From Gillisia sp. Hel_I_86 (GTDB taxonomy: Bacteria; Bacteroidota; Bacteroidia; Flavobacteriales; Flavobacteriaceae): a stretch of 64,000 nucleotides of DNA. The position numbers and the translations under genes were made by a program. Within the stretch, counting starts at the first letter, position 1. Each line of letters opens with the position of its first letter. The stretch covers positions 930,001-994,000 of the forward strand of contig NZ_VISE01000001.1 of assembly GCF_007827275.1 (NCBI RefSeq), written 5' to 3'. Shown here one piece after another: positions 29,317 through 48,418 of the stretch. The notes beneath the pieces were generated by a model. That model saw only the letters and a program-made list of their open reading frames with translations. It was not told the origin of the DNA and searched no databases.

Positions 29317-30063
29317 ATGAAAGTGAAAACAATTTTAATATCTCAGCCAGAGCCTAAAATAGAAAATTCACCTTATTTTGAGCTGGAAGAAAAACAACGA
29401 GTAAAAATTGATTTCATACCATTTATTCATGTTGAAGGAGTTAACTCCAAGGATATTAGACAACAAAAAATAGATCTTACCAATTATACGGCTATTATTT
29501 TAACCAGCAGAAATGCGGTAGACCACTTTTTTAGAATAGCAGAGGAAATGCGCTTTAAAGTGCCAGACACCCTTAAGTATTTTTGTTTAAGTGAAGCGGT
29601 AGCATATTATTTACAGAAATATGTAGTGTACAGAAAGCGAAAAATATATGTTGGGAAGCGCACATTCTCAGAGTTGTCCCCATATATTAAAAAGTATAAG
29701 AACGAAAAATTCCTTTTGCCGGCCTCAGATATGCTGAAGCCGGATGTGCCCAAAATACTTAACAAGTTGGGCGTAGAATGGAAACAAGCGGTTTTTTACA
29801 AAACTGTGGTAAGCGATCTTTCAGATTTAAGAAATGTTACTTACGATATTCTAGTATTCTTTAGCCCCAGCGGAATAAAATCGCTTTTTGAGAACTTCCC
29901 GGAATTCGAACAAAAAGATACGAAGATCGCAGTTTTTGGAAATACCACCATCAAGGCAGCAAAAGATCACGGATTGGTTTGCAATATAAAAGCACCCACC
30001 CCGGAAACCCCATCCATGACAATGGCACTTCAGAAATACATTAAAGAAGCTAACAAGAAATAA
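29317..30063 (+). CDS. hemD: Uroporphyrinogen-III synthase
   Basis: The 248-residue enzyme cyclises hydroxymethylbilane to uroporphyrinogen III in haem synthesis. HemD proteins are poorly conserved; the supporting features are the two alternating alpha/beta domains, YTAIILTSRNAVDHFF near 50-66, FCLSEAVAYYLQ, LPASDMLKPDVP, and the second-domain VFFSPSGIKSLFE and KIAVFGNTTIKAAKDHG, where the conserved Thr/Ser residues line the cleft. It is co-transcribed with the DUF4271 gene and followed by a terminator. Confidence 0.9.
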   Translation: MKVKTILISQPEPKIENSPYFELEEKQRVKIDFIPFIHVEGVNSKDIRQQKIDLTNYTAIILTSRNAVDHFFRIAEEMRFKVPDTLKYFCLSEAVAYYLQKYVVYRKRKIYVGKRTFSELSPYIKKYKNEKFLLPASDMLKPDVPKILNKLGVEWKQAVFYKTVVSDLSDLRNVTYDILVFFSPSGIKSLFENFPEFEQKDTKIAVFGNTTIKAAKDHGLVCNIKAPTPETPSMTMALQKYIKEANKK

Positions 30064-30083
30064 AGAATTTTTTTTACATAAAA

Positions 30084-30127
30084 TAAAAAAAGCCGATTCC
30101 TCCTAACAAAGGGCATCGGCTTTTTAA
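30084..30127. terminator. Bidirectional terminator between hemD and the lipoprotein gene
   Basis: AAAAAGCCGAT and ATCGGCTTTTT pair around an 18-base loop and T-runs occur on both strands. It is 22 bases after the hemD stop and about 20 bases from the end of the convergent lipoprotein gene. Confidence 0.85.
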
Positions 30128-30147
30128 TTTCATTTTAAAACCATTGT

Positions 30148-33288: not shown

Positions 33289-33723
33289 ATGAAAGCCACT
33301 TATCTTACCTGCACTACTCTTCTTTTTAGTTTTATCTTATTTACTTCTTGCAAGAAGGATGATGAGCCAACTATCACAACCACCAGTAGTGAGATTTTAG
33401 GAAGGTGGTATCCTGTTGAGGCTGTTGTAGAAGGAGTGGTTTTTCCATATGATGATCATGAAGATTGTGGTAAAGATTATTTGGAATTTACCGTTGAGGA
33501 GATAATAAGAGAAGTAGATATATTGAATTGCGAAGAAGTTATTGATGGAACTGGAAGATATGAGATCAATGGCAATATTTTGAGTCTAAATTATGGAGGC
33601 TTAGAAAGCATTCAAATAGAAATTATAGATTTAACGGCCTCAACCCTTATCTTGTTATTTGAAGAAGATCAGGATGACGATGGAGATTTAGAAGAGGTTA
33701 GGGCACGGTACTCTAGAGAATAA
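33289..33723 (+). CDS. Lipocalin-like lipoprotein
   Basis: The 144-residue protein has a lipoprotein signal (LLFSFILFTSCKKDDE, Cys21), followed by a beta-rich domain with ILGRWYPVEAVVEG at the start and GRYEINGNILSLNY in the middle, as in the lipocalin-like domains (type DUF4923/lipocalin_4) common in Bacteroidota. Mature protein is strongly acidic with a DQDDDGDLEE stretch near the end. It is divergent from the split metallopeptidase gene (154-bp gap). Ligand and role unknown. Confidence 0.8.
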   Translation: MKATYLTCTTLLFSFILFTSCKKDDEPTITTTSSEILGRWYPVEAVVEGVVFPYDDHEDCGKDYLEFTVEEIIREVDILNCEEVIDGTGRYEINGNILSLNYGGLESIQIEIIDLTASTLILLFEEDQDDDGDLEEVRARYSRE

Positions 33724-33789
33724 TCTTTTTGAGCAAAAGACTGCAGTTATTTAAAAACTTCTTAAGAATGGTGTGGAATAAACAATTAT

Positions 33790-34345
33790 ATTGTATATCC
33801 GTTTTATGTACTATAGTTGTTTCGTCAGCCTGAGACCTGTGACAAAAAAAAATTATCCAGTGTAGGAAATTGACGTATGATGGTTCTTAGCATATTTATC
33901 GTTTTTAAGAACTTCTTTTTTGCAGTGTAGTGCTTCCCCAGCGTAAAATCTTCGAAGCCAAGGAGAAAATTTAGCTGGGGGAGCACGGTTCTAGTTATGC
34001 GGCAGCATAATTGGAAACACCTACAAAAAAGTGTCCTTTTTTTGGTTCCGTTTTTTTCGACAAACAAAAAAATGAACAATCATTAAAATTAATCAAAGCT
34101 TTATAGACCAAAGGGAGTGTTTTGCAAATTCTTGGAATTACCGCAATGAGAACAAAAAGCGCATTAAAAATGGCCAAGGAATTAGATGCTATAATTAGCT
34201 ATAAATCAGTAACTTATTAATTACGTCAATGGTAATTTATCTCAGGTTCTCAATTTACTATATTGATTATTAGTGCTATAAGATTCTGAAACAAGTTCAG
34301 AAAGACGTTATTTATTGTTTTATTATACTTTACGGATATATTATA
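33790..34345. repeat. Repeat-filled gap with 51-bp element and 250-bp structured element, copy 1
   Basis: After a TGTATATCCGTTTTATGTA motif shared with 24549, a 51-bp element runs from 33823 to 33875 (CGTCAGCCTGAGACC to AATTGACG). The structured element (33876-34123) follows and is listed separately. 34230-34330 resembles the end of the block at 24720-24845, with GATTCTGAAACAAGTTCAGA at 34282. A minus-strand frame over 33825-34079 is not considered a gene. Confidence 0.75.
33876..34123 (+). repeat. Candidate structured RNA / MITE-like element, copy 1
   Basis: Three potential hairpins occur in order. First, GTGCTTCCCCAGC (33930-33942) with GCTGGGGGAGCAC (33974-33986). Second, AGTTATGC (33993-34000) with GCATAATT (34005-34012). 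Third, GG-AA-ACAC (34013-34020) with GTGTCC (34031-34036), followed directly by seven T. Copy 2 (47887-48135) keeps all three although the arms differ at wobble positions (GGGGGAGCAC against GGGGAAGTAC; AGTTATGC against AATTATGC). The last hairpin plus T-run looks like an intrinsic terminator. No family is recognised. Confidence 0.6.
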
Positions 34346-34377
34346 TCTAAAAATAAATAAAACCCGATAAATATTGA

Positions 34378-35976
34378 CTACACAATAGGCCCTCCAGAAA
34401 GGATTTCCTTATTGGAGTTGTCTTCATATTTCTTAAAGTTCGTTTTAAACGAATTGGCAAGTTCCATTGCCTTGGCATCGTAAGCATCCTTATCGCTCCA
34501 AGTTTGTCTAGGATTCAATACTTCACTGGGAACATTTTCGCATTCCAACGGCATATGAAGGCCAAATATGGGATGTCGAGTAAATTCCACATCTGCCAAT
34601 TTACCGTCCAAAGCAGCTTCGATCATTGCCCTGGTATATTTTAACTTCATCCTGTTCCCTGTACCGTAAGCTCCACCGGTCCAACCAGTGTTTACCAACC
34701 ATACATTTACATCAGCTTCTTTCATTTTCGTGCTTAACATCTCGGCATATTCTGCTGGGTGCAACGGCATAAAAGGTGCGCCAAAACATGCAGAAAAGTT
34801 TGGTTGTGGCTCATCTACCCCAGCCTCGGTTCCTGCCACTTTCGCAGTATATCCACTCATAAAGTGATATGCCGCTTGGGCAGGAGTAAGTTTGCTTATT
34901 GGAGGCAATACCCCAAAGGCATCGGCAGTTAAGAAAAATATGTTCTTGGGATTTTTTCCTATAGAAGGTTTTGCTATATTTTTAATATGATTTAAAGGAT
35001 AACTCACACGAGTGTTAGGGGTAATAGACGTATTTCCAAAATCTACACTGCCATCTTCATTAAAGATCACATTTTCCAAGATCGCTCCGGGCTTAATGGC
35101 ATGAAATATATCCGGTTCATTTTCTTCTGAAAGGTTGATCACTTTTGCGTAACATCCACCTTCAAAATTGAAAATAGTGTTTTCTTTGGTCCATCCGTGC
35201 TCATCGTCTCCAATAAGCTTGCGCTTTGGATCTGCAGACAAGGTTGTTTTTCCCGTCCCTGAAAGTCCGAAGAAAACAGCGGTATCTCCATCTTCACCTA
35301 TATTTGCAGAACAATGCATGGGAAGGGTGTTCTTGTGTACAGGAAGAATAAAATTCAATGCTGAAAAAATTCCTTTTTTGATTTCCCCAGTATATCCACT
35401 ACCACCTATCAATGCGATTTTCTTTGTGAAATTTAAAATAGAAAAATTTCCTTGGCGCGTTCCATCCACTTCCGGATCGGCTTTAAAACCAGGCGCATTC
35501 ACTACGATCCAGTCTTCCTTAAAATTTTCCAGCTCAGCTTCTTCTGGTCTTAAAAACATATTGTATGCAAATAAATTGGACCAGGGATATTCGTTTATTA
35601 CACGAATATTTAAACGGTAGTTATCATCTGCACATATATAAGAGTCCCGTACATAAATTTCCTTTTCAGAAAGGTAATCTACTACCTTGTCGTACAACTT
35701 GTCAAATTTATCAGCGTCAAAGGGAATATTGATATCTCCCCACCAAACTTTCTCCTTGGTCTCTTCATCCTTTACCAAAAAGCGGTCTTTAGGGGATCTC
35801 CCGGTAAATTCTCCTGTGTTCACAGCTAAAGCGCCACTCGATGCCTCAACTCCTTGGTTATTGTCCAAAGTTATCTGATGTAATTTTTCTGGAGATAGTT
35901 GATAGTGAGCAGTAGCGTTAATAATTCCGTATTTGTCTAACGATAACGATTTCGTAATTTGCTTGTTTGCCAACAT
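34378..35976 (-). CDS. pckA: Phosphoenolpyruvate carboxykinase (ATP)
   Basis: The 532-residue enzyme converts oxaloacetate and ATP to phosphoenolpyruvate at the start of gluconeogenesis. The ATP-type signature LIGDDEHGW and the P-loop FFGLSGTGKTTLSADPKRK occur at about 245-275, with HCSANIGEDGD (catalytic metal/substrate site) just before. VNTGEFTGRSPKDRF near 50-65 binds oxaloacetate. The start ATG at 35976 gives the usual N-terminus and length. The gene stands alone between a repeat-filled gap and the DUF423 gene. Confidence 0.97.
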   Translation of the reverse strand: MLANKQITKSLSLDKYGIINATAHYQLSPEKLHQITLDNNQGVEASSGALAVNTGEFTGRSPKDRFLVKDEETKEKVWWGDINIPFDADKFDKLYDKVVDYLSEKEIYVRDSYICADDNYRLNIRVINEYPWSNLFAYNMFLRPEEAELENFKEDWIVVNAPGFKADPEVDGTRQGNFSILNFTKKIALIGGSGYTGEIKKGIFSALNFILPVHKNTLPMHCSANIGEDGDTAVFFGLSGTGKTTLSADPKRKLIGDDEHGWTKENTIFNFEGGCYAKVINLSEENEPDIFHAIKPGAILENVIFNEDGSVDFGNTSITPNTRVSYPLNHIKNIAKPSIGKNPKNIFFLTADAFGVLPPISKLTPAQAAYHFMSGYTAKVAGTEAGVDEPQPNFSACFGAPFMPLHPAEYAEMLSTKMKEADVNVWLVNTGWTGGAYGTGNRMKLKYTRAMIEAALDGKLADVEFTRHPIFGLHMPLECENVPSEVLNPRQTWSDKDAYDAKAMELANSFKTNFKKYEDNSNKEILSGGPIV

Positions 35977-47749: not shown

Positions 47750-48418
47750 AGCCTAAGAAATTGACGTATTTATTAAAATACCTTATAAGATGCTGAAACG
47801 AGTTCAGCATGACGTGCAAATTCAGGATCAGCATCGTCACCCTGAGACCCGTGATAAAAAAATTTACCTAGCGTAGGAAATTGACATATTGTGATTCCTT
47901 GCAAGTTTATTTTTCTTAAGAACCCCTTTTTTGCAAGTGTAGTGCTTCCCCAGCGTAAAAATTTTTGAAGCCTTGGAGAAAATTTAGCTGGGGAAGTACG
48001 GTTCTAATTATGCGGTAGCATAATTGGAAACACCTACAAAAAAGTGTCCTTTTTTTGGTTCGTTTTTTTGGACAAGCAAAAAAATGAACAATGATAAAGA
48101 TTACGTAAGTCTTTATCGACCAAAGGGAGTGTTTTACGTATCTTTAAAAATACGTCAATGGTAGACCCGTGACAAAAAAATATCTAGCCTAGGAGAATTG
48201 ACGTAATTTTCGATTTTCTAATGAAATATAGATGCTGAAACGAGTTCAGCATGACGCTCAAATTCCAAGCGAGCATCGTCACCCCTGTGCCGATAGCTAT
48301 CGGAATTGTTTCAGAGTCTATATTACGCAAATAAAATACGTCATGGCAGTGTAGTCGAAGGATCGGGATACTCTGGTGACATTTTTTTAGATGTTGAGAA
48401 TATTTATAGATGCTCAAA
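47750..48418. repeat. Repeat-filled gap with two 51-bp elements flanking structured element copy 2
   Basis: The palindromes GATGCTGAAACGAGTTCAGC (47789 onward) and GATGCTGAAACGAGTTCAGC (48231 onward) flank the block. The 51-bp elements at 47835-47886 (CGTCACCCTGAGACC to AAATTGACA) and 48153-48203 (CGTCAATGGTAGACC to GAATTGACG) stand in direct orientation on both sides of the structured element at 47887-48135. After that come CGTCACCCCTGTGCCGATAG and CTATCGGAATTGTTTCAGAG, another degenerate repeat. No credible gene. Confidence 0.8.
47887..48135 (+). repeat. Candidate structured RNA / MITE-like element, copy 2
   Basis: Hairpin 1 pairs GTGCTTCCCCAGC (47942-47954) with GCTGGGGAAGTAC (47987-47999). 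Hairpin 2 pairs AATTATGC (48006-48013) with GCATAATT (48018-48025). Hairpin 3 pairs GG and ACAC (48026-48033) with GTGTCC (48044-48049), with a T7 run after it. Overall similarity to copy 1 is high from about 47921 to 48075, with changes concentrated in loops and at wobble pairs. Downstream, GACCAAAGGGAGTGTTTT is also shared. Confidence 0.6.

What the first reader, a model, noticed from the sequence alone, without database searches (positions are those of the whole stretch)
33876..34123. Two-copy element with three hairpins that persist through wobble changes, and a terminator-like end
The pair 33876-34123 and 47887-48135 shares a core with three potential stems in the same order. The differences inside arms tend to keep pairing: the 3' arm of stem 1 is GCTGGGGGAGCAC in one copy and GCTGGGGAAGTAC in the other against an identical 5' arm, and stem 2 is AGTTATGC or AATTATGC against GCATAATT. 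Stem 3 is followed by T7 in both. This suggests selection on, or recent descent from, a structured RNA of about 120-170 nt. It has no open frame worth keeping and matches no RNA class I know. It may be a non-coding RNA that has been duplicated or a mobile RNA-like repeat.
Basis: partly seen in the sequence, partly recalled or inferred. Interest (0 to 1): 0.72.

Follow-up and report, generated by a model that had tools for sequence, protein, structure and literature searches.

The report
Jumping repeat carrying a folded RNA
The repeat is a small jumping element that lacks its own enzyme gene and carries a conserved folded RNA found between genes of many flavobacteria; I found no description of this RNA, and its job is unknown.

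Summary
Two things are nested.

Vehicle: 33834-34234 and 47846-48163 have the ends of a REP-targeting IS110-family insertion sequence, sit in REP hairpin loops, and copy 1 keeps an in-frame remnant of the transposase C-terminus. They are non-autonomous IS110-type elements.

Cargo: a structured RNA matching no Rfam family: a three-way junction with a near-invariant apical loop, then an H-type pseudoknot. Covariation is strong: 30 of 42 pairs changed on both sides, 36 of 42 in a second set sharing one row.

The RNA occurs in 53 of 249 sampled Flavobacteriaceae genomes, many copies without IS110 ends, some in other inverted-repeat elements or operon gaps (paa, trp, bio, kyn). In one subfamily the near upstream gene is on the RNA's strand in 23 of 23 distinct copies.

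Function is inferred. I favour a cis-acting 3' mRNA stabiliser or insulator (about 0.4). That it is the bridge RNA of this IS is largely excluded.

The parts
33834..34234 (+). Copy 1: non-autonomous IS110-type element, left end GACCTGTGAC, right end ACGTCAATGGTA
   Evidence: junctions and ends; shared with autonomous IS of G005
33822..33833 (+). Left arm of the REP hairpin into which copy 1 is inserted (TCGTCAGCCTGA)
34235..34251 (+). Right arm of that REP (ATTTATCTCAGGTTCTC)
34150..34219 (+). In-frame remnant of the transposase C-terminus (frame from 34152: TKSALKMAKELDAIISYKSVTY and stop)
   Evidence: blastn match to G005 IS
33913..34032 (+). RNA core of copy 1, R1 match 89.2 bits
33915..33922 (+). 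P1 5' arm CTTTTTTG (3' arm 34024-34031)
33930..33942 (+). P2 5' arm (3' arm 33974-33986)
33943..33973 (+). Conserved apical motif of P2, with loop GAAGCC..GGA
33989..34016 (+). P3 hairpin (33989-34000 with 34005-34016)
34032..34036 (+). Pseudoknot stem S1 5' strand TGTCC (partner 34058-34062 CGACA; one mismatch in this copy)
34037..34043 (+). Loop L1, the T7, proposed third strand of a triple helix
34045..34077 (+). Hairpin S2 (GTTCCGTTTTTTT with AAAAAAATGAAC)
47846..48163 (+). Copy 2: element of the same kind, followed directly by a further left end
47924..48045 (+). RNA core of copy 2, R1 match 106.5 bits
48045..48089 (+). 3' module of copy 2: TGTCC 48045-48049, T7 48050-48056, S2 48058-48069 with 48078-48089, GGACA 48070-48074

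Best explanation
Shown by sequence: the finding is a small non-autonomous transposable element with the ends of a REP-targeting IS110-family insertion sequence. It carries a conserved structured RNA of a family that I found in Flavobacteriaceae only and that matches no Rfam family: a three-way junction (P1, P2 with a near-invariant apical motif, P3) followed by a 3' H-type pseudoknot. Inferred: the element moves when an IS110 transposase with its own guide RNA acts on the ends in trans; the pseudoknot loop L1 (the T7) lies in the major groove of S2 as a U.A-U triple helix (about 0.75). The RNA is not the guide RNA of that IS but a module that also lives outside it. Function (about 0.4, inference): a sense-strand cis element at the 3' side of a gene, whose compact pseudoknot shields the upstream mRNA from 3'-to-5' decay or insulates neighbouring operon segments, as REP hairpins are thought to do.
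For: Ends and REP-loop insertion: of 21 distinct genus copies (22 rows, L034 repeats L032), left junction read in 17, after TGA or CGA in 16; right junction read in 19, REP arm in 16, another left end in 3. Same ends on an IS110-family RNA-guided transposase element. In-frame transposase remnant. Structure: A1 30 of 42 pairs changed on both sides, score 0.609 against 0.173 shuffled; A2 36 of 42, 0.596 against 0.175. Pseudoknot pairing of at least 4 nt in 117 of 136 hairpin-bearing copies. L1 holds C in 53 of 53 copies with G in the purine tract and in 1 of 25 without (78 of 136 usable). Sense bias: near upstream gene sense in 23 of 23 distinct copies of one subfamily and in 91 of 133 of the rest.
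Against: No transcript, decay or mobility data. In the other subfamilies 42 of 133 copies with a near upstream gene are antisense to it, which a pure cis role does not predict. Operon gaps without the RNA hold REPs and other repeats, so the operon association may only reflect where repeats are tolerated. Triple helix: one exception in 25, 58 of 136 copies could not be used, and in the common 9-nt tract both strand directions fit. Copies are related, so P values overstate independence. This genome has no close transposase (best 36% identity).
Confidence: 0.72

Rival explanations
1. The RNA is a cis-acting regulator of operon expression: a riboswitch, attenuator or processive antitermination element that lets RNA polymerase read through long operons.
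For: Sense orientation and operon gaps: in six genomes all 12 R1 matches lie in the phenylacetate operon; others in trp, bio, kyn. Riboswitch-like build (junction plus pseudoknot).
Against: Neighbours span unrelated pathways (paa, trp, bio, kyn, arsM, metY, ffh), the gap used differs between genomes, and distance to the next gene varies. Antisense copies exist outside one subfamily.
Confidence: 0.2
2. The RNA works in trans with an unidentified protein (nuclease, transposase or reverse transcriptase) that spreads it, as omega-RNAs do with TnpB.
For: Many copies (37 R1 matches in G005; seven within 7.7 kb in G454), two or more vehicle types, pseudoknotted scaffold with a near-invariant loop suited to protein binding.
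Against: No recurrent partner gene beside 163 or 204 copies beyond common domains and operon neighbours; a distant partner was not sought genome-wide.
Confidence: 0.2
3. It is the bridge RNA (guide RNA) of the IS110 element, kept in the deletion derivative.
For: It lies where the left non-coding end of an IS110 element lies; short similarity around AGTRTAGTGYTTC to the IS leader.
Against: The autonomous IS copies have another leader that R1 does not match and whose loop repeats the target (7 of 7 copies read). The RNA occurs in genera and operons without IS110 ends.
Confidence: 0.06
4. There is no functional RNA: DNA hairpins of a neutral repeat, alike by recent descent.
For: Dispersed, patchy, with internally deleted copies; within the genus the pair-change signal is weak.
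Against: Strand-specific signals: covariation across genera, pseudoknot, L1 tracking the purine tract, near-invariant loop, sense bias.
Confidence: 0.05

Closest known systems
REP-targeting IS110/IS1111 insertion sequences (IS621, PMC11208160, passages; ISPa11, PMC11187229, passages; ISPpu9, PMC8450116, abstract start in a search listing)
   Same: Same transposase family (NF033542), REP targets, long leader upstream of the gene with a loop matching the target.
   Different: The window element lacks the gene and carries an unrelated structured RNA; it has subterminal inverted repeats (ATTGACGTAT / ATACGTCAAT) as IS1111 does, but the long non-coding end is upstream as in IS110.
Bacterial interspersed repeats and MITEs (REP/BIME, ERIC, BOX; recalled)
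   Same: Short, dispersed, intergenic, folding, often between operon genes.
   Different: A conserved RNA with pseudoknot covariation across genera, oriented, in more than one vehicle.
[quoted passage not shown] SAM-II and telomerase RNA, recalled)
   Same: Topology: U-rich loop 1 beside an A-U stem 2.
   Different: No metabolite gene class; preceded by a three-way junction; multi-copy.
Bridge RNA / seekRNA
   Same: Structured RNA inside an IS110-type element.
   Different: Not matched by R1 in the sister IS leaders; occurs without IS110 ends.

Membership tests
Non-autonomous IS110-family element | Ends shared with an autonomous IS of that family | tested here: met
Non-autonomous IS110-family element | Autonomous IS encodes a DEDD/IS110 transposase | tested here: met
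   PF01548, PF02371, NF033542
Non-autonomous IS110-family element | Same specific target (REP loop after TGA/CGA) | tested here: met
   16 of 17 left junctions read; 19 of 21 right junctions read, 16 REP arms
Non-autonomous IS110-family element | Mobilised in trans by that transposase | not testable with these tools
   needs a mobility assay
IS110 bridge RNA | Homologous to the leader RNA of the autonomous IS | tested here: not met
   R1 finds no match in the IS leaders of L085, L092, L093; only a short similarity
IS110 bridge RNA | Loops complementary to target and donor | not tested
   looked at by eye only; met by the IS leader loop, not systematically tried for the window RNA
Known Rfam family | Match at the gathering score | tested here: not met
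   window; permissive search of 33800-34200; seven other loci
Riboswitch / cis-regulatory RNA | Consistent class of regulated gene | tested here: not met
   neighbours of many pathways
Triple-helix pseudoknot | Third strand in register with the purine strand | tested here: inconclusive
   C tracks G 53 of 53; parallel better in 72, antiparallel in 3, equal in 3 of 78 parsed, but 9-nt tracts fit both ways after a slide
Intrinsic terminator | GC stem followed by T run | tested here: not met
   0 sites at 33700-34400

The most novel reading that the evidence does not exclude
A mobile RNA module, something like a bacterial SINE: one conserved RNA with a triple-helix pseudoknot that has been taken up by at least two unrelated transposable-element types, spreads to dozens of copies, and in some lineages is settled between operon genes as a sense-strand mRNA stabiliser or read-through element.
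Probability: 0.35. Interest if true: 0.88.

Novelty: new variant of a known kind. Interest (0 to 1): 0.7.

Why it matters
A structured RNA found in 53 of 249 sampled Flavobacteriaceae genomes, with a probable triple helix and no Rfam family, is a concrete new target in a group whose non-coding RNAs are poorly charted. If the triplex blocks decay in cis, it would be a bacterial counterpart of stability triplexes known elsewhere (recalled), spread by transposable elements. The sister IS110 copies also show leader loops that follow two different REP targets in nature.

Tried and rejected
Rejected or unsupported: bridge RNA of this IS110. Terminator. Known Rfam family. Y1/RAYT transposase with the same ends: this genome has 13 Y1 matches, but among the fetched loci L061-L084 only the IS110 locus L083 matched the repeat; 12 of the many Y1 places were fetched. 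Recurrent partner gene: none apart from common domains, operon neighbours, and one family beside 4 of 204 copies. Phages, plasmids (blastn) and viral contigs (exact motif): no match.

Rows dropped or double: A1 used 21 of 24 representatives (L100, L136, L143 left out); one search failed for 7 of 163 copies; one search kept 136 of 161; one search used 78 of 136; its first version had a faulty pattern and is not used; one search parsed 78 of 175 (inserts and 7-nt tracts fall outside its pattern). In some searches and 106 rows L032 and L034 are one copy, so 21 distinct copies stand. One search held 2 repeated copies, removed. One match (L105) lies inside a gene and is probably chance. Comparisons with empty operon gaps and between copies gave no clean unit boundaries outside the IS110-type elements.

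Literature: seven searches; passages only of PMC11187229, PMC11208160, PMC2864571, PMC9723704; other papers only as listings. I saw no description of this RNA there; preprints and most subscription papers are not covered.

Full report
The observation. Both copies are present as described and each folds far better than its shuffles (z -5.67 and -5.48, 0 of 200). No Rfam 15 family matches. The core is not two-copy: blastn finds it in 11 of 60 genomes including this one. The covariance model R1 gives 8 matches here (7 complete copies and one internally deleted) and matches in 8 of 16 genomes of the genus; G005 has 37, four of them low-scoring and of a second type. Contig lengths show the genus to be Gillisia: contigs of G001, G005 and G006 have the lengths of Gillisia limnaea, G. 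hiemivivida and Gillisia sp. CAL575 records.

The vehicle. The left end alone recurs at 29 further places in this genome; of the 15 of these that I read, 13 show the matching right end within about 170 nt, around two REPs in place of the RNA. The RNA-bearing element lies inside the loop of a REP hairpin. In 21 distinct genus copies, the left junction could be read in 17 and follows TGA or CGA in 16; the right junction could be read in 19 and continues as the REP right arm in 16 and as another left end in 3 (one of its 22 rows is a repeat). The REP arms on the two sides often match each other, for example CACCCCGA with TTTCAGGGGTCTC. The same ends bound a complete insertion sequence in G005, whose 443-aa protein is an IS110-family RNA-guided transposase (PF01548, PF02371; NF033542, 213 bits). 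Copy 1 still reads in frame as the transposase tail (TKSALKMAKELDAIISYKSVTY against SLFKMAKEMGMVISYNTAT, each followed by a stop). So 33834-34234 and 47846-48163 are non-autonomous IS110-type elements. A close transposase is rare: 5 of 299 family genomes match at E 1e-60, one of them at 71% identity; the three copies in this genome are 35-36% identical. G010 has six such IS copies but no R1 match.

The leader of the autonomous IS. Upstream of the transposase gene lies a structured leader. In 7 of 7 copies that could be read (8 examined; L339 is cut by a contig end), of three RNA variants, a hairpin loop repeats the left target: CCTGAG where the flank is CCTGA (2 copies), TTCGAG where it is TCGA (5 near-identical copies). 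This is what a target guide should look like (PMC11208160, passages), but is inferred. R1 does not match the leaders in L085, L092 and L093, so the window RNA is not the bridge RNA of this IS, apart from a short similarity at its start.

The RNA family. From 163 distinct copies I aligned 21 divergent ones (A1). For the structure read from them, 92.5% of cells pair (69.4% shuffled), 30 of 42 pairs change on both sides, and the covariation score is 0.609 (0.173 shuffled, at most 0.207 slid). Because the structure was read from these rows, I tested it on A2: 27 rows, one shared with A1, the next nearest 91% identical to an A1 row. There 85.8% pair (61.5%), 36 of 42 change on both sides, score 0.596 (0.175; slid at most 0.230). 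Within the genus alone the signal is weak, as expected at 94% identity: 98.7% paired against 97.3%; 3 pairs changed on both sides, a number reached by 59 of 500 shuffles; score 0.084 against 0.054, 0 of 500. R1 matches 53 of 249 family genomes, 52 of 235 genera, and 5 of 296 genomes of a phylum sample, all five in the same family.

The 3' module. Downstream of P1, 136 of 161 copies give a strong hairpin. Part of its loop pairs with a segment shortly upstream over at least 4 nt in 117 and over 3 nt in 17; 2 have none. The pairing changes in step (UGUC/GACA, CGCA/UGCG, CGUC/GACG, UGCC/GGCA, UUCC/GGAA). The loop L1 is a pyrimidine tract that mirrors the purine strand of the hairpin: in 78 usable copies of 136, L1 holds a C in 53 of 53 whose purine tract holds G and in 1 of 25 whose tract does not (Fisher 3e-19); by unique modules, 39 of 39 against 1 of 15, 48 of 102 skipped. 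Copies are related, so P overstates independence. In 78 of 175 modules parsed, parallel register fits better in 72, antiparallel in 3, equal in 3. But a common L1 is the 9-nt tract UUUUCUUUU, where sliding by one base fits both directions, so only a minority truly discriminates. In two copies of the second RNA type (L350, L352) the purine strand has a U and L1 a G at that place (by eye), the third base that I recall as best for such an inversion; in one of that type (L354) L1 has C against A. I take a triple helix as probable (about 0.75), not proven. In the window, L1 is the T7.

Where it sits. In 114 copies scored (3 more lie in ORFs) the upstream gene is on the RNA's strand in 84. In a subfamily defined by TTGAAATG in P1 (24 distinct copies), 23 of 23 with a gene within 600 nt upstream are sense; of 22 with both neighbours near, 21 are in line with both and one is convergent. 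In the rest the near upstream gene is sense in 91 of 133 (correcting for two repeats). Neighbours in the subfamily include paaA-paaB, paaJ-paaZ, trpC-trpF, trpB, bioD-bioA, kynureninase, PNP-arsM, metY and ffh. In six genomes (G348, G490, G533, G436, G484, G495) all 12 R1 matches lie in the phenylacetate operon, on its strand. Against a specific role there, several gaps of those operons without the RNA hold REPs and other repeats.

Other vehicles. Kordia, Dokdonia and Haloflavibacter copies are flanked by inverted repeats like TAACGTnAGTTCGATAT. With up to 2 mismatches this occurs 56, 64 and 29 times in three of five genomes (controls 5, 3 and 4), but 5 and 11 times in the other two (controls 2 and 7). 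In 3 of 8 copies shown for Salinimicrobium and relatives I see IS110-type ends (L126, L220, L238, by eye). In G454 seven copies lie within 7.7 kb, four of the six steps being 361-391 nt. No partner gene recurs; phages, plasmids and viral contigs gave no match. The simplest reading is an RNA module that rides in different elements.

How it most likely works. Shown by sequence: ends, target, transposase remnant, fold, pseudoknot, distribution, sense bias. Inferred: movement in trans by an IS110 transposase; triple helix; function. A compact pseudoknot at the 3' end of a module that tends to lie behind genes on their own strand suggests protection or insulation of the upstream mRNA (about 0.4), ahead of a switch or read-through role (0.2) and a trans-acting partner (0.2). 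No transcript data were available.

Noticed in passing
window 48164-48350: Directly behind copy 2 lies a further left end GACCCGTGAC and, near 48346, a degenerate right end (ACGTCATGGCA): a short element of the same kind, with REPs inside, in tandem.
   Followed up: partly
this genome, 29 places (L046-L060 and others): Short elements share the left end (and in 13 of 15 read the right end) but carry two REPs instead of the RNA.
   Followed up: partly
L085, L092, L093, L346-L349: IS110-family IS whose leader hairpin loop repeats the left target, in two target types; a natural example of guide and target varying together.
   Followed up: partly
L350-L358: A second type of the RNA with another P2 apex but the same P1, P3 and pseudoknot; in G014 and G006 it lies between the same two genes, the second beginning like DNA polymerase I (by eye).
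   Followed up: partly
L281, L282, L283, L286, L291, L295: Phenylacetate operons whose intergenic gaps hold this RNA, REPs and other repeats.
   Followed up: partly
Kordia and Dokdonia genomes (G886, G887, G889): Abundant short elements with TAACGTnAGTTCGATAT inverted repeats, many pairs 100-400 bp apart; transposase not identified.
   Followed up: no
L020 about 1540-1570; L085 2989-3132: GC-rich REP-like hairpins inserted in the apical loop of the RNA.
   Followed up: no
window 30053-30136 (-): Weak R1 match (24.2 bits, E 0.0039) at a GC hairpin followed by T's near a gene end; probably chance.
   Followed up: partly
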